Assembly: GCA_947642555.1 (NCBI GenBank) | Contig: CANRSX010000023.1 | Coordinates: forward strand, 1-64,000 | Source of the DNA: an uncultured Roseburia sp. | GTDB taxonomy: Bacteria; Bacillota; Clostridia; Lachnospirales; Lachnospiraceae | DNA: 64,000 nt | Reading direction: 5' to 3' | Shown: positions 27,772-33,553 of the stretch, one piece after another | Layout: each line of letters begins with the position of its first letter | Position numbering within the stretch: the first letter of the stretch is position 1 | Notes under the pieces: generated by a model | Told to the model about the DNA's origin: nothing | What the model saw: only the letters and a program-made list of their open reading frames with translations | Database searches by the model: none | Made by a program: the position numbers and the translations under genes

Positions 27772-28632
27772 ATGAAGACAAAGAAAAGCAGACGAATCGC
27801 GGCGTTTCTTGCTGTCTGCATGACAGGAGCGCTGGCAGCGGGCTGCGGCTCGGGCGCGGATAAGGCCAAAGCGCCGGCGGATGCGCGGACGGAAGAACAG
27901 AGCGGCGCGCCGTCGGCGGATGTGCGGACAGAAGAACAGGGTGGTGCGTCGTCGGCGGATGCGCGGGCAGAAGAACAGGGCGGCGCGTCGTCGGCGGAGA
28001 CGAATGAGGAGGCTTCCGCGGGAAAATGGCAGGTGCTGGGGCTGGAGGAAGCCGCGGCTGTTGACGCGGATTTCCTGGGAAAGGTCTGGAAAATAGAAGA
28101 GGATTCCTTTTATATCGTAGAAAAAAAGGTGAAGATTCTCGAGGACGGTTCCCTGGTGACCGGCGCCCCGGCCACTGGTGCGGATGTACCGGATTCCGAG
28201 CTCATTCCGGTCATTTTTGACGGGAACACCTGTTTTTACGTGAGGACGATTTCAGACAACGGAGAAACCACTGAGGACATGGAGGCCGGCTTTGAGGATC
28301 TGGAACTCTATATATCAGTTGACCTGAAAGGCAGATTTGAGCATGATGTCTTTTACGCGGATGAGATCCGGATGGAAAAAGATTCCGAAGGCATGGAATA
28401 TACAAAGAGCGACCCCGTTACCGGAATCGTAGAGACATATACGGATTCTATGATTGTAGTTAAAGATCCCGGCGACGGTATGACCTATTATTTTTCCACG
28501 GAACATGTCAGGGATGCGGAGGGCGATGCTCCGGTGGCTGTGGGCGATACGGTGGAGGTTACATACCGGGGCGTGCTGGGCAATGACGAAAAGAACCCCG
28601 GAGAGGCGTTAAAGATTGCGCCCGCCCCGTAA
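27772..28632 (+). CDS. Uncharacterised lipoprotein with three tandem 13-residue repeats
   Basis: A 286-residue lipoprotein; the signal peptide ends at lipobox ALAAGC (Cys at about 25). Residues 36-74 are three repeats of (A)DxRxEEQxGAxSx. A C-terminal domain of about 190 residues follows with two similar strand-rich blocks, EIDSFYIVEKKVKILED-like and DSMIVVKDPGDGMTYYF, suggesting an OB-like fold or surface-exposed binding domain. GGAGGCTATAAGG precedes the ATG. I recognise no family. A strong terminator follows. Confidence 0.7.
   Translation: MKTKKSRRIAAFLAVCMTGALAAGCGSGADKAKAPADARTEEQSGAPSADVRTEEQGGASSADARAEEQGGASSAETNEEASAGKWQVLGLEEAAAVDADFLGKVWKIEEDSFYIVEKKVKILEDGSLVTGAPATGADVPDSELIPVIFDGNTCFYVRTISDNGETTEDMEAGFEDLELYISVDLKGRFEHDVFYADEIRMEKDSEGMEYTKSDPVTGIVETYTDSMIVVKDPGDGMTYYFSTEHVRDAEGDAPVAVGDTVEVTYRGVLGNDEKNPGEALKIAPAP
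27877..27993 (+). repeat. Three tandem 39-bp units in the lipoprotein gene
   Basis: Units at 27877-27915, 27916-27954 and 27955-27993 begin GCGGATG(C/T)GCGG and encode ADARTEEQSGAPS-like peptides with few differences. They lie in the linker between the lipid anchor and the folded domain. Confidence 0.9.
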
Positions 28633-28679: not shown

Positions 28680-28730
28680 AATCCGGCAGAGACCAGGGGC
28701 GTACGCTCTCCCGGTCTCTGCCGGATTTTA
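28680..28730. terminator. Bidirectional terminator between convergent genes
   Basis: AATCCGGCAGAGACC pairs perfectly over 15 bp with GGTCTCTGCCGGATT, followed by TTTTA on the plus strand and preceded by an A-containing stretch for the minus strand. It separates the lipoprotein gene from the recombinase cassette. Confidence 0.85.
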
Positions 28731-29543
28731 TGAGGAGGACGGCTCTTTCGCCGGGCGTTTTGCGGCATAGAGCTTCTCCCAGCCCAGCGCATTGCTGTGC
28801 GTTTTTTTGTTATAGCAGATCAGCATGGCCTCCGCGAAGCCGAGGGAACCGGCACGCCGTTCGTTTGCGGTGCGCACGAGCTCACGGATGGAGATGAGGC
28901 CGAGCTTTTCTTTGAACAGATCTTCTCTGAGCGTGTCGCCGTACACCGAAACCAGCCGGGCGATGCCGTTTAGCATATTCGCGCTTAAGGACTGCGGGAC
29001 GCCCTCCCAGGTCCCGACGGCCAGCCGCAGGACGCGGTCAAGGACATGGAAGCCGTAACGGTCGTGAATCTGTTCCAGTGTGTACACGGCGCAGATGTGG
29101 CAGGGCCCCGGCTTGGGGGAGATGACAAGGCGGTATGATTCCACGAGATCACGGATGATCAGCTGTTTGTCGCTGCCGGCCTCGATACTGGCCATAAAGA
29201 TCTCGTAGGGCAAAAGCGGCTTTACGAATTTCTGCTGATTGGCAAAAATATCGGCTTCCCTGGCATACTTAAGGTCGTCGTAGATCATGCACCAGACCGG
29301 GGTCTCGCGGGAATCCGACACCAGCGCGATGATCTCGATCGTGTGCTGGCCGTTGAAGACATAATTGACGCCGTCTCTGCGGCTGACCTTGACCGGGTTG
29401 ATCTGATACAGGTCAAAATGCTCCGCGGCGTGCTGAATATGCCGGAGCGAGAGATTCCGCTGATATTCCTGGCTGGACACCAGGTTTTTGATCGGAATCT
29501 GTTCAAAGTGGACGTTTGGGACGAAACAGCTGTAGTTTTCCAT
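28728..29543 (-). CDS. ParB-like (DUF6551-type) protein
   Basis: ATG 29543 is preferred (GGAG 6 bp upstream) over 29555, giving 271 residues. The N-terminal 100 residues show a ParB/Srx-type fold: EYQRNLSLRHIQHAAEHFD, INPVKVSRRDGVNYVFNGQHT, then READIFANQQKF. These match the nucleotide-binding or ParB-N layout seen in DUF6551 proteins. The remainder is helical. It is the last gene of a four-gene minus-strand cassette and follows another ParB-like gene by 28 bp. DNA binding or CTP-dependent activity is possible but not shown by sequence. Confidence 0.65.
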   Translation of the reverse strand: MENYSCFVPNVHFEQIPIKNLVSSQEYQRNLSLRHIQHAAEHFDLYQINPVKVSRRDGVNYVFNGQHTIEIIALVSDSRETPVWCMIYDDLKYAREADIFANQQKFVKPLLPYEIFMASIEAGSDKQLIIRDLVESYRLVISPKPGPCHICAVYTLEQIHDRYGFHVLDRVLRLAVGTWEGVPQSLSANMLNGIARLVSVYGDTLREDLFKEKLGLISIRELVRTANERRAGSLGFAEAMLICYNKKTHSNALGWEKLYAAKRPAKEPSSS

Positions 29544-29571
29544 TGATTTCTCCATTCTGTGGTGTTGTGTC

Positions 29572-30534
29572 TTACGAATCCTGACCGGGTGACGCGGCGC
29601 CCGGCGCGCACTGCGCCATGGCGCGCAGAGCCGAGTTTACGGTTTCGGACAGCAGGGCAAGCTGCCTGCCGGTCCCCTCATACGTTTCAGGCGACACGGC
29701 GGAAAGGTCGCTTTGGGCAAAGGTGCGCTCAATGGATCCGATCCAGGAGGGAATCGTATAGCGCAGGCTCTGCATTCCCGCATCCGGGTCGTAGGCAGGC
29801 ATCTCCTTGATCGCGGTTCTGATCGCGGGGGCGTCGGCCTTTTTTTCGGCGGAACGCTCTGCCGTTCGTTTTGCATGCGGACCGGGAGCGCTAAGATCCG
29901 ACCGGGTGAGCCTTCCCCTCTGACTGTCCGCGAGTCTGCGGGTATGATGCTTTAACTGTTCTTTTGACAGCTTTGCAAAGACGACTGCATTTTCATATGA
30001 GATTGCAATCCGCCCGTCAAGAATTCCGTTTGCGAGCTCCGGCTCGAGACTGCGGATGCGGTCAATGGCTGCGGCGAGCGTCCCGGCTTTGTAAACGGTG
30101 TGCATGGACATGCCGCAGGCTGCTCCGAGCCGCGCGCCGATCACGGCCCGCGGATGCGGGGAGGAAGGATCCCTGCGGGTGCGGTCGCGGTATGCGATAT
30201 TTTTTGCGGCGGTAAAAAATGTCCCGATCAGATACCGCCGGAACATGGCGGGAAGGAATTCTTTTTCCAGGTGCGCCTGACAGATGCAGCAGACGGCGTC
30301 CTCGCGTCCGGGAAAGCTCTGGACGGATACTTCAAATGGAATATCGTATTTCCTGCAAATGTCGTATCTGAGGTGCCCGTCGATGATCCGTCCGTTCCAC
30401 ACCAGAAGAGGGGTGAGACAGCCGTATGTCCGCAGCTGTTCCTCCAGCAGGGCATAATCCGCGGGGGGAAGCCCGGGGGAGAGATGCCTGAATTCCGTGT
30501 CGTTATACCGTGTCTGTTTTGTCTGTCTGTTCAT
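29572..30534 (-). CDS. ParB N-terminal domain protein
   Basis: A 320-residue protein. Residues 15-60 read LSPGLPPADYALLEEQLRTYG then CLTPLLVWNGRIIDGHLRYDICRKY, the ParB-N pattern (xPLxVWxxxIIDGHxRY) of ParB/RepB/Spo0J relatives. A helix-turn-helix-like segment lies at about 130-160 (RLGAACGMSMHTVYKAGTLAAAI). A charged linker and C-terminal helical region follow. It overlaps the upstream gene by 32 bp, so translation is coupled. It probably binds DNA. The absence of ParA argues against a partition role. Confidence 0.75.
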   Translation of the reverse strand: MNRQTKQTRYNDTEFRHLSPGLPPADYALLEEQLRTYGCLTPLLVWNGRIIDGHLRYDICRKYDIPFEVSVQSFPGREDAVCCICQAHLEKEFLPAMFRRYLIGTFFTAAKNIAYRDRTRRDPSSPHPRAVIGARLGAACGMSMHTVYKAGTLAAAIDRIRSLEPELANGILDGRIAISYENAVVFAKLSKEQLKHHTRRLADSQRGRLTRSDLSAPGPHAKRTAERSAEKKADAPAIRTAIKEMPAYDPDAGMQSLRYTIPSWIGSIERTFAQSDLSAVSPETYEGTGRQLALLSETVNSALRAMAQCAPGAASPGQDS

Positions 30535-31081
30535 GCGGTTCCTTTCCCCGGTGCAGGCCCTCTGTCAGCGTGAGGACGGTGTTTTCCTCAAAGGTCTGTA
30601 CCGGCAGGTTCTGGTGTCTGGCAGCCGGGACGCCGAACTGTGATTCCCATGAAGCGGGATAGCGCGGCGTCTGTCCGGGAGGGCCGGGGGCATAGCATTC
30701 CGGCGCGTTTAAGTCAAAGGCCAGGAGAACATCCGCGCCGTCGGTGACCTGTTTCCCCAGAAGCCGGTAGCGGAGGACAGGGTCCCATCCGAGCAGAGAA
30801 AAAAGCTTTGCAGAAAAGGCCGGACAGGGAATCTGGCGGGGGCGTCTTTTGCCGCTGCCGGCGGAACACCAGCGGAGCGCGTCTTTATCTTCCGGAAGGC
30901 TTTTGCGCAGCAGCAGCTTCTTTTTCTGCGGGTGGATCAGAAACTGGATACAGGCGGTCTCTGGCCACAGGTTCAGACAGACCATATTGACGTAAACCCG
31001 GTTTTTGTAAAAGGTCAGAGACGGCTCGTTCGTGTGGGCAAAAAATTCGCCGTGCACCACCTCATACCCGTCCCCGGTCAT
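30503..31081 (-). CDS. Small protein sharing the recombinase tail domain
   Basis: A 192-residue protein of no named family that I recognise. It matches the C-terminal region of the recombinase encoded immediately upstream in several blocks: FLIHPQKKKLLLR against LLIHPDRLSFAVR; FSLLGWDPVLRYRLLGKQ against FSLCRWDPALTYRITGTL; LLAFDLNAP against LLFDLHNAH; and ASWESQFG against SVWESRRS. Its start overlaps the recombinase stop (ATGA type), so the two are co-translated. It may be an accessory subunit that joins the recombinase synaptic complex. Confidence 0.6.
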   Translation of the reverse strand: MTGDGYEVVHGEFFAHTNEPSLTFYKNRVYVNMVCLNLWPETACIQFLIHPQKKKLLLRKSLPEDKDALRWCSAGSGKRRPRQIPCPAFSAKLFSLLGWDPVLRYRLLGKQVTDGADVLLAFDLNAPECYAPGPPGQTPRYPASWESQFGVPAARHQNLPVQTFEENTVLTLTEGLHRGKEPHEQTDKTDTV

Positions 31082-33015
31082 GGCGTATCCTTTCGCAGCT
31101 CCGCAAGCAGCGCGAGAATCTGCCTTCTGAGCTCTCTGCGGGTGCTGACGCCAAAGGAGGGGTCGTGGCGGCTCCCGGCGCTGCGCCGGCTCTCCCAGAC
31201 AGAGGAAACAAGCGTCTGCTGCCGGTACCTGCCATCGTAGTACGCTTCGCCGAATGCAGCGGGATGGGCGTTATGCAGGTCAAACAGCAGGAATTCTTCG
31301 TTTCCTTTGCGAAAAAGCGTGCCTGTGATGCGGTATGTGAGAGCAGGATCCCAGCGGCAGAGGGAGAAGAGTACCGGCAGAAACGCCCTGCCGCCGATCG
31401 GACGCGGGCGAATGACGGATCGACAGATGTCGCTGCCGGGCGGATCAGTTTGTCTGTTAGCGTTATCGCCGGACGGGGCATTCTCTCTGCTGGCGTCACC
31501 GTCCTGTACACTCGCCCAGCGAACCGCTTCCCGGCGCGCGGCGGGGCAGGGCCGGACGGCGAAGGAGAGCCGGTCCGGGTGAATCAGAAGCTCTGCGTGC
31601 GACGCGGACCGGAAAAAACTGCGCACACTGACGGCGTTAAAGCGCAGGGAGCCGGACGAGAAGACGACGGCAGGCTGATCCGCCATGTCAAACAGGCGCG
31701 CGCTTACGGTCTCGTAGCCGCGCAGGTCAAAGGAGCCTGCGGGCGCTGTCACACAGGGCGCAGCCGGATACAGCGCAGCCGCAGTGGCCGGATCCGGACG
31801 CGCGGTATCTGCCGTGCCGGGCGCAGTGGCCGGATCCGGACGCGCGGTATCTGCCGTGCCGGGCGCAGTGGCCGGATGCGCATGGGCGCTTCGGGAAGCG
31901 AGACGGTAATCATCCGCGGTAAAGCCGGCCCATCTCGGATTGACCAGGACATACCCGTCAAAGACGCCGCCGGATACCGCCATCGGATGGGGCAGAAAAT
32001 TTCTGCCGCCGTAACGGGCGTTGCTGATCTGCTGCTGCGCGGCGATAAAATCCCCCCTGGAAATGATGGCGGCATGATGATTTTTCTGAAGATACTGATT
32101 GCGGTCAAACCGGTTCTTTTTTGAACGGTGGTCCAGATAGTTTGGCGTCCATGTTTTTCGCGCGAGCACGTCCCCGCAGTGTCGCTCATTCTGTAGGACG
32201 TTTAAGACGGAATGCTCCGACCAGCAGGAGACGCCTTTTTTGGTCGGACGGTTCAGACGTTCTAACAGGGCGGCGATCTTCCGGCAGCTGTGCCCGTACA
32301 GATATAAGGAAAAAATAAACCGCACGGTTTTAGCCTCCTCCTCGTTGACGATCAGGTTTCCGTCCGCGTCCTGATCATAGCCGAGCAGCGGCGGGGTCAG
32401 AAAGATGCCGCGCTTAAACCGCATCTCGATGGAGGCGTTCATGATCTCGCTTTTGTTGTGACTTTCCTCCTGCGCAAGCGTGGAGAGAAAGGACAGGCTC
32501 ATCTCACTGTCAGGATTTAAGGTGAAAATATTTTCCGTCTCAAAAAACACGCCGACCGGCGGCTTTAATTCCTTCAGCTCGCGGACAACGCGGATACAGT
32601 CGACGACATTGCGCGCGAACCGGGAAACGCTTTTCGTCACGATCAGATCCAGCTTTCCGTCCCGGCAGTCCGCGATCATCCGCAGAAACGCGTCCCGGTG
32701 CTGTAAGGAGGTGCCGGATATCCCTTCGTCGGCATAGATTTCCGCCAGCCGCCATCCCGCGTGGCGCTGCACGAGATCCTGATAATGGTTCCGCTGAAGC
32801 TCATAGGAGGAGGTCTGACGCGGATCATCCGTGGAGACGCGCGCGTATACGCCGACCCGTTTTTCGCGGAGACTGCCGTCAGGGTGATCTTTTGCGCGGG
32901 CGGGGATGACATCGAGAAGCGCGGTATCAATGCCGCGGTATCTGCTGCGGATCCGCTCTTTTTTTGCCGCGGTATCAAAACTCTGTTCTTTGCACTCTCT
33001 CATAAGCATCTCCAT
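31078..33015 (-). CDS. Large serine recombinase with unusual C-terminal extension
   Basis: A 645-residue protein. The resolvase domain begins VGVYARVSTDD with the catalytic serine at about residue 61, and continues with DEGISGTSLQHR and VTKSVSRFARN. A recombinase DNA-binding domain follows (GYDQDADGNLIVNEEEAKTV..., ERLNRPTKKGVS, NERHCGDVLARKT). Instead of the usual zinc ribbon it has a VLVNPRWAGFTADDYRLAS segment, an Ala/Pro-rich linker with tandem repeats, and a tail domain shared with the next gene. Starts at 33015 or 33003 are both plausible. It heads the cassette. It may act on DNA inversion or excision; no att sites could be recognised by eye. Confidence 0.85.
   Translation of the reverse strand: MEMLMRECKEQSFDTAAKKERIRSRYRGIDTALLDVIPARAKDHPDGSLREKRVGVYARVSTDDPRQTSSYELQRNHYQDLVQRHAGWRLAEIYADEGISGTSLQHRDAFLRMIADCRDGKLDLIVTKSVSRFARNVVDCIRVVRELKELKPPVGVFFETENIFTLNPDSEMSLSFLSTLAQEESHNKSEIMNASIEMRFKRGIFLTPPLLGYDQDADGNLIVNEEEAKTVRFIFSLYLYGHSCRKIAALLERLNRPTKKGVSCWSEHSVLNVLQNERHCGDVLARKTWTPNYLDHRSKKNRFDRNQYLQKNHHAAIISRGDFIAAQQQISNARYGGRNFLPHPMAVSGGVFDGYVLVNPRWAGFTADDYRLASRSAHAHPATAPGTADTARPDPATAPGTADTARPDPATAAALYPAAPCVTAPAGSFDLRGYETVSARLFDMADQPAVVFSSGSLRFNAVSVRSFFRSASHAELLIHPDRLSFAVRPCPAARREAVRWASVQDGDASRENAPSGDNANRQTDPPGSDICRSVIRPRPIGGRAFLPVLFSLCRWDPALTYRITGTLFRKGNEEFLLFDLHNAHPAAFGEAYYDGRYRQQTLVSSVWESRRSAGSRHDPSFGVSTRRELRRQILALLAELRKDTP
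31781..31877 (-). repeat. Two perfect 42-bp tandem repeats plus a 13-bp partial copy in the recombinase gene
   Basis: GCAGTGGCCGGATCCGGACG plus 22 further bases occurs at 31781-31822 and 31823-31864, and the first 13 bases recur at 31865-31877. They encode the 14-residue linker repeat ATAPGTADTARPDP. Perfect identity suggests a recent slippage expansion. Confidence 0.9.
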
Positions 33016-33077
33016 TTCTGCCGGCCTCCCCGCAATTCGCCGGTCATATGGCAGGCGCAGGTACTGTCTCTGTCCGG

Positions 33078-33083
33078 ATTATA
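33078..33083 (-). promoter_or_regulatory. Extended -10 promoter element for the recombinase cassette
   Basis: The minus strand reads ATGCTATAAT: a perfect TATAAT with the TGn extension, 63 bp before the recombinase start. No good -35 is visible, which extended -10 promoters tolerate. Confidence 0.55.
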
Positions 33084-33193
33084 GCATGAACAGGGGCTGA
33101 GAAACATGGCCCGGCGGGCAGGCAGTTGACCGGTGGGACAGGAAAGAGGTATCTTTTCCTGATAAAAGACCTGACTTACAAAGGAGGAGAACG

Positions 33194-33553
33194 ATGGGGG
33201 TAAATTTTGAACTGGTGGGAAAACGGATCAGGGAGGTGCGGACATCCAGACGGGTATCGCAGCAGGAGCTGGCGGAGTCGGCGGAGCTCTCGGCCGCGTA
33301 TATCAGCAGGATTGAGCGCGCGAGGAAGAAGACCAGCTTAGAATCGCTGGTAAAGATCGCGAATGTGCTGGGGGTTACGGTGGACGAGCTGCTCTGCGGC
33401 AACCAGATGTATGATCCGGCGGAATATCAGACTGATATGGATCTGGAGCTGGCGGACTGCAGCCACGTGGAAAAGCGGATCCTCTATGAGGTGGTGCGCT
33501 CGGTCAAGCGGATTATCCGGGAAAACAGCGGGCAGGACGGACGAAAGTCATAA
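33194..33553 (+). CDS. XRE-family HTH transcriptional regulator
   Basis: A 119-residue protein. Residues 6-65 form a Cro/C1-type helix-turn-helix (GKRIREVRTSRRVSQQELAE, ELSAAYISRIERARKKTSLESLVKIANVLGVTVDELL). The remaining 50 residues are an acidic then basic helix that could dimerise. AAAGGAGGAG precedes the ATG. It is transcribed divergently from the recombinase cassette across 178 bp, the usual position for its repressor, although co-expression with the downstream rhamnosidase gene is also possible. Confidence 0.88.
   Translation: MGVNFELVGKRIREVRTSRRVSQQELAESAELSAAYISRIERARKKTSLESLVKIANVLGVTVDELLCGNQMYDPAEYQTDMDLELADCSHVEKRILYEVVRSVKRIIRENSGQDGRKS

What the first reader, a model, noticed from the sequence alone, without database searches (positions are those of the whole stretch)
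28728..33015. Four-gene recombinase/ParB-like cassette of unknown purpose
A serine recombinase, a small protein sharing its tail domain, a ParB-N protein and a DUF6551-like ParB-fold protein are packed on one strand with overlapping stops and starts, opposite an XRE regulator and without ParA, capsid, conjugation or cargo genes. It is neither a normal integrase module nor a partition locus. A recombinase working with ParB-like clamps could form a programmed inversion, excision or DNA-defence system.
Basis: partly seen in the sequence, partly recalled or inferred. Interest (0 to 1): 0.75.

Follow-up and report, generated by a model that had tools for sequence, protein, structure and literature searches.

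The report
Phage-derived recombinase–ParB module, solitary copy
These genes are a working-looking copy of a conserved, undescribed gene set (a DNA-rearranging enzyme, its companion protein and two ParB-like proteins) that temperate gut phages and defence-carrying mobile elements share, stranded here alone between ordinary bacterial genes; its job is unknown but may be to exclude rival phages or mobile DNA.

Summary
The four genes are real and form a conserved unit, not a chance cluster. Homologous sets in Clostridia run: XRE regulator, serine recombinase (active-site residues conserved in 36 copies), tail protein 1, usually tail protein 2 (lost here), a ParB-like protein, and a DUF6551 protein. 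In IMG/VR viral contigs 99 of 99 usable loci (some duplicates) have the recombinase and ParB-like gene upstream of DUF6551. The set is the lysogeny-side operon of many Ca. Heliusvirales temperate phages, where GenBank calls nearly all its genes 'hypothetical protein'. It also sits in an ICE, in Tn554-like and Tni-type transposon islands, and alone in chromosomes. It therefore accompanies several unrelated integration machineries, so it is probably not the element's integrase. Neighbours in about ten independent loci are anti-phage systems. The window copy is nearest to one in an ICE (DUF6551 about 80% identical), has intact genes, lies between ordinary transport and sugar genes, and shows no convincing att repeats or invertible segment. 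Function is inferred: a mobile-element immunity/exclusion or lysogeny-maintenance module in which a ParB-like clamp directs a serine recombinase.

The parts
31078..33015 (-). Serine recombinase (645 aa): resolvase + recombinase domains, no zinc ribbon, novel C-terminal tail domain
   Evidence: Pfam; residues Y57, R59, S61, Q67, R132, R135 conserved in at least 95% of 36 homologues including this one
30503..31081 (-). Tail protein 1 (192 aa): stand-alone copy of the recombinase tail domain
   Evidence: phmmer E 1.6e-12 to recombinase tail; 35-45% identity to homologues; AlphaFold core pLDDT about 95, no significant PDB match
29572..30534 (-). ParB-like protein (320 aa): ParB-N fold with HTH region; P-motif GxxR present (DGHLRY at residue 52)
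   Evidence: AlphaFold pLDDT 88; Foldseek 5k5d E 2.7e-5, Spo0J 1vz0 E 3e-4; arginine kept in 51 of 59
28728..29555 (-). DUF6551 ParB-fold family protein (275 aa), the most conserved member; P-motif arginine replaced (NGQHTIE)
   Evidence: Pfam E 1.9e-26; 57-70% identity to phage and bacterial homologues; NGQHTIE in 14/14 aligned rows and 127 of 135 viral copies
33194..33553 (+). Divergent XRE-family regulator (119 aa); homologues lie beside or head the module in phages and islands
   Evidence: HTH_3 E 2e-14; phmmer matches beside the module in related loci
33016..33193 (.). Divergent intergenic region between the recombinase and XRE genes, with a TATAAT-like box on the recombinase side
   Evidence: sequence read directly; promoter assignment is inference
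28680..28727 (.). Terminator-like inverted repeat just after the last gene (DUF6551)
   Evidence: inverted repeat I2, 18-nt arms, 94% complementary

Best explanation
Shown: this is a solitary, intact-looking copy of a conserved mobile module (XRE - serine recombinase - tail protein 1 - [tail protein 2] - ParB-like - DUF6551) that is the lysogeny-side operon of temperate phages of Clostridia and is also carried by an ICE, transposon islands and defence islands. Strongly suggested: it is an accessory, not the integrase, because it rides with unrelated integration systems. Inferred mechanism: the XRE protein represses or times the unit. The ParB-like protein loads on DNA at a specific site through its HTH and NTP-binding domain. 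Together with DUF6551 and the tail proteins it brings the zinc-ribbon-less serine recombinase to that site, where it cuts or recombines incoming or sibling mobile DNA. The benefit to the carrier would be exclusion of competing phages and elements. The window copy was probably inherited from a lost phage or ICE and kept, or recently stranded.
For: Linkage: recombinase and ParB-like genes upstream of DUF6551 in 99/99 usable viral loci, some duplicate contigs; tail 1 in 94, tail 2 in 91. Same order in bacteria. Phages: 17 phage records carry close DUF6551 homologues, including all 14 of one capsid clade. Unrelated integration systems alongside: large serine recombinase pairs or trios (47 of 73 loci), tyrosine-recombinase trios of a split-cpaF island, TniA/TniB-type transposase (L160), ICE relaxase (L277). 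Defence neighbours. Islands I232 and I239: module block 93.7% and trio block 93.4% identical while R-M cargo is swapped. Window DUF6551 groups with ICE copy L277 at support 100/98, 80.5% identical.
Against: None of the four proteins matches a PADLOC defence model. Within one phage clade the module is constant, and sister phages keep a simpler recombinase plus small protein at the same spot, which looks more like a core lysogeny function than cargo. Defence genes are common on mobile elements generally, so adjacency is weak evidence and no background rate was measured. No DNA target site was identified. The DUF6551 protein has lost the NTP-binding arginine.
Confidence: 0.42

Rival explanations
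1. Lysogeny or element-maintenance module: the recombinase with tail and ParB-like partners controls integration direction, resolves multimers or stabilises the prophage or island; it assists the separate integrase rather than fighting other phages.
For: Position in the repressor operon, convergent and often base-adjacent to the large serine recombinase pair in phages; constant within a phage clade; sister phages have a shorter recombinase + small protein at the same place; island backbone keeps module and integrase trio together.
Against: Found with several unrelated integrases and also alone; sister phages lack the ParB pair; no att-like site next to it in the window.
Confidence: 0.35
2. The recombinase is itself an integrase and the window module is a minimal integrative element.
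For: Catalytic residues intact; one end of the cpaF island lies about 450 bp beyond the DUF6551 gene.
Against: The same island has a tyrosine recombinase trio at its other end; phages carry a separate serine integrase pair; zinc ribbon absent; solitary copies L278 and L280 could not be bounded on the second side.
Confidence: 0.08
3. In this genome the module is a functionless leftover of a lost prophage or ICE.
For: Tail protein 2 missing, tandem repeat expansion in the recombinase linker, no other element genes among the neighbours tested.
Against: All four ORFs intact; DUF6551 still 80% identical to the nearest relative with all conserved motifs; recombinase active site intact.
Confidence: 0.12
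4. Programmed DNA inversion or excision switch for the neighbouring genes.
For: A serine recombinase is present with an intact active site.
Against: No convincing inverted-repeat pair brackets a promoter or gene; only a marginal 18/20 direct repeat 28732/34349, one copy in the DUF6551 gene end and the other inside the rhamnosidase gene.
Confidence: 0.03

Closest known systems
Lysogeny region of Ca. Heliusvirales temperate phages (e.g. PV036410, PV036424, PV036458)
   Same: Same genes, same order, same strand; XRE-family repressor gene at the head; DUF6551 about 67-72% identical to the window
   Different: Phages carry tail protein 2, a separate integrase pair and structural genes; the window has none of these nearby. 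The description of the group (PMC9226167) lists nine core genes, none from this module, and its text has no mention of recombinase, integrase or ParB
Staphylococcal cassette chromosome recombinases CcrA/B/C
   Same: Best NCBIfam hits of the recombinase; some relatives lie in islands carrying R-M systems
   Different: Scores far below cut-offs (108.8 vs 900 bits); different tail and partners
Orphan ParB-CTPase-fold proteins of mobile elements, including DUF6551 (PMC12704722)
   Same: DUF6551 and ParB-N folds outside parAB operons; tested phage DUF6551 proteins bound CTP or ATP
   Different: That paper's text has no mention of a recombinase; the P-motif arginine is lost in this DUF6551 family
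Prophage superinfection-exclusion regions between repressor and integrase (own knowledge)
   Same: Similar genomic position; a lipoprotein gene lies near the repressor in phages and the ICE copy
   Different: Known examples, as far as I recall, do not use a serine recombinase with ParB-like partners; that lipoprotein is absent from the window

Membership tests
ParABS partition locus | ParA ATPase encoded with ParB | tested here: not met
   No ParA among module genes or the flanking proteins tested
ParABS partition locus | ParB-type fold with NTP-binding P-motif | tested here: met
   320-aa protein: Foldseek to ParB-N and Spo0J, GxxR present
ParABS partition locus | parS-like centromere site | tested here: inconclusive
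   Only a hairpin/dyad upstream of the recombinase in some phages, not found in the window; could be a terminator
DUF6551 (PF20188) | Profile match above gathering score | tested here: met
   93.5 bits vs cut-off 26.8
ParB-CTPase fold, NTP-binding (DUF6551 protein) | P-motif (GxxR) arginine, needed for NTP binding in the proteins tested in PMC12704722 | tested here: not met
   NGQHTIE, Thr in place of Arg, 14/14 rows and 127 of 135 viral copies
Large serine integrase | Catalytic serine recombinase core | tested here: met
Large serine integrase | Zinc ribbon (PF13408) after the recombinase domain | tested here: not met
   No PF13408 hit, although a sister-phage integrase hits it
Large serine integrase | att sites bounding the element | tested here: inconclusive
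   No flanking repeat beyond a marginal one and no empty site to compare; split-cpaF junctions belong to islands that carry another integrase
Ca. Heliusvirales prophage | Nine core genes (terminase, portal, protease, capsid, DNA polymerase and others) | tested here: not met
   Flanking proteins tested are transporters, kinase/regulator and sugar genes; not every window ORF was scanned
Known anti-phage defence system | Match to PADLOC models | tested here: not met
   No hit for any of the four proteins
Known anti-phage defence system | Protects a host from phage or foreign DNA | not testable with these tools
   Needs a plating or transformation assay
SCC cassette recombinase (Ccr) | NCBIfam equivalog score | tested here: not met
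   108.8 bits vs cut-off 900

The most novel reading that the evidence does not exclude
A previously undescribed anti-mobile-element system in which a ParB-like sliding clamp marks DNA and recruits a serine recombinase with an orphan tail domain to recombine or break it, spread by phages, ICEs and defence islands across Clostridia.
Probability: 0.33. Interest if true: 0.85.

Novelty: new variant of a known kind. Interest (0 to 1): 0.55.

Why it matters
A conserved five-gene unit that recurs in common human-gut temperate phages and in defence-bearing islands is annotated almost only as hypothetical proteins, and I found no description of it in the papers searched. Whether it excludes rivals or governs lysogeny, it would link ParB-type DNA clamps to site-specific recombination, a combination I did not find described. 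The solitary copies make it directly testable outside a phage.

Tried and rejected
1. Module as the integrase of the 21-22 kb islands that split cpaF: first favoured, then weakened when a tyrosine-recombinase trio was found at the other end. 2. Att duplication or invertible segment around the window copy: only a marginal repeat. 3. Empty-site mapping for the window: flanking genes are poorly conserved in 60 genus genomes and the flank DNA is not found in relatives beyond short matches. 4. Empty sites for copies L278 and L280: only the XRE-side boundary could be placed; the other flank is not shared with relatives, so these copies may sit at the edge of larger islands. 5. Fold of the tail domain: no PDB match; weak sliding-clamp hits (E 0.03, TM 0.14) are not evidence; a few viral hits to unnamed phage proteins. 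6. Conserved site search upstream of the recombinase: a dyad AATAACCACAGGTATA/TATACCTGTGGTTATT in about ten loci, near T tracts, could be a terminator or an operator. 7. Papers: searches on DUF6551, Heliusviridae, Heliusvirales and recombinase/ParB terms gave no description of the module.

Full report
What is there. The region 28728-33015 holds four minus-strand genes plus a divergent XRE gene at 33194-33553. The recombinase and the 192-aa gene overlap by 4 bp, the 192-aa and 320-aa genes by 32 bp, and the last two are 16 bp apart. Pfam confirms a resolvase and recombinase domain and DUF6551. The 192-aa protein is a stand-alone copy of the recombinase tail. The 320-aa protein has no Pfam hit but a confident ParB-type model: mean pLDDT 88, best PDB matches pNOB8-like ParB-N and Spo0J with probability 1.0. 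Its NTP motif GxxR is present and kept in 51 of 59 relatives; the DUF6551 protein instead has NGQHT in 14/14 aligned rows and 127 of 135 viral copies.

It is a conserved unit. Relatives in bacterial genomes show the order XRE, recombinase, tail 1, tail 2, ParB-like, DUF6551. A second architecture in Lachnospiraceae and Ruminococcus has XRE, an AAA_25 ATPase, recombinase, tail 1 and tail 2 without the ParB pair. In IMG/VR contigs, 99 of 99 loci with enough upstream sequence have recombinase and ParB-like genes ahead of DUF6551; tail 1 in 94 and tail 2 in 91 (some contigs are duplicates). The catalytic residues of the recombinase are conserved in at least 95% of 36 copies including this one. The window lacks tail 2; so does L077.

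Where it lives. Phages: 17 phage records, mostly complete Ca. Heliusvirales genomes, carry it; in those opened it lies between the repressor region and a convergent pair of large serine recombinases, with a few other genes between in some. All 14 phages of one capsid clade have it; three sister phages opened have a roughly 400-aa serine recombinase with a small protein near the same spot instead. Prophages: L276, with phage lysis and tail genes beside the integrase pair, and L082; in both the XRE side lies near an N-terminally shortened comEC (that comEC is interrupted is my reading). ICE: L277, beside a relaxase. Islands: in G239 and G232 a 21-22 kb insertion splits a type II/IV secretion ATPase gene; the module block is 93.7% and the far-end tyrosine-recombinase trio 93.4% identical, while the restriction system between them differs (type I vs MmeI-like IIG). 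A third genome, G155, has the same left junction with the other gene half on another contig. Transposon: L160 has TniB-like and Mu-type transposase genes plus TIR and TPR-S proteins. Chromosomal copies with no other element genes recognised nearby: the window, L278, L280, L281, L283.

Defence neighbours. About ten independent loci have a known or candidate anti-phage system within several kilobases: type I, type IIG, type III (two loci) and LlaJI restriction systems, Mza, AbiL, CBASS, PDC-M68 and TIR/TPR-S. L022 and L023 are 96% identical across the module but carry CBASS and PDC-M68 respectively. No matched background rate was measured, so this is suggestive only.

The window copy. Its DUF6551 groups with the ICE copy L277 with support 100/98; protein identities are 80.5% (DUF6551), 55.5% (recombinase), 45% (tail 1), 41% (ParB-like). 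Flanks are an oligopeptide transporter, MATE, cyclase and lipoprotein on one side and a rhamnosidase, two-component system and sugar ABC transporter on the other. Neither flanking gene is well conserved in the genus sample, so no empty site could be compared. Repeats flanking the module are marginal. It is the only copy of this DUF6551 family in its genome.

Interpretation. Because the same module travels with serine integrase pairs, tyrosine trios, a TniA/TniB-type transposon and an ICE, and also occurs alone, it is unlikely to be the integrase. Two functions remain: exclusion of competing mobile DNA, or control of lysogeny and maintenance. I put the first slightly ahead because of the defence company, the lysogeny-operon position, and the lipoprotein and second XRE gene that phage, prophage and ICE copies share. 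The constancy within a phage clade and the simpler version in sister phages argue for the second. The molecular steps (site loading by the ParB-like clamp, recruitment of the recombinase, cutting) are inference from domain content.

Novelty. GenBank annotates the module genes in the phage records opened almost only as hypothetical proteins; one record calls the XRE gene a transcriptional repressor. The description of the phage group lists nine core genes, none from this module. DUF6551 appears in one held paper, as a ParB-fold protein that can bind CTP or ATP. I found no description of the module, within the limits of an open-licence library.

Noticed in passing
window 31780-31905: 42-bp tandem repeat (two perfect copies and a partial third) in the linker before the recombinase tail, adding a 14-aa ARPDPATAPGTADT-type repeat not seen in the relatives compared
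   Followed up: partly
window 27872-27998: Three 39-bp-spaced tandem copies in the DUF5666 lipoprotein gene encoding an ADARTEEQ-type repeat
   Followed up: no
L025-L046: Second module architecture: divergent XRE, AAA_25 RepA-like ATPase, recombinase, tail 1, tail 2, without the ParB pair, in Lachnospiraceae and Ruminococcus; several lie near large serine recombinases
   Followed up: partly
L021:5296-5928 and similar ~210-aa ORFs upstream of the recombinase in 44 viral loci: An N-terminal recombinase-like protein precedes the active recombinase; in L021 the catalytic serine motif looks lost (YIRYFNQT), so it may be a dead regulatory paralogue
   Followed up: no
G239:C12:410362-432190; G232:C1:46606-67735: 21-22 kb island splitting a cpaF/tadA-type secretion ATPase gene, with swapped restriction cargo; ends show CTTATATG / CATATAAAG inverted repeats
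   Followed up: partly
L276:146-1738 and L082:9897-11492: comEC apparently shortened at its 5' side beside a module-bearing prophage, a possible comEC attachment site like comK in Listeria (analogy from own knowledge)
   Followed up: no
L111:9907, L168:5995, L171:6013, L177:6017, L153:6447: Dyad AATAACCACAGGTATA...TATACCTGTGGTTATT with nearby T tract upstream of the recombinase in diverse phages; terminator, attenuator or operator
   Followed up: partly
L276:3412-3897, L277:15735-16436, L118:14040-14726: Homologous predicted lipoprotein next to the second XRE gene in prophage, ICE and phage copies; candidate superinfection-exclusion protein
   Followed up: partly
G000:C9:55522-58812: Three serine recombinases in tandem elsewhere in the window's own genome
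   Followed up: no
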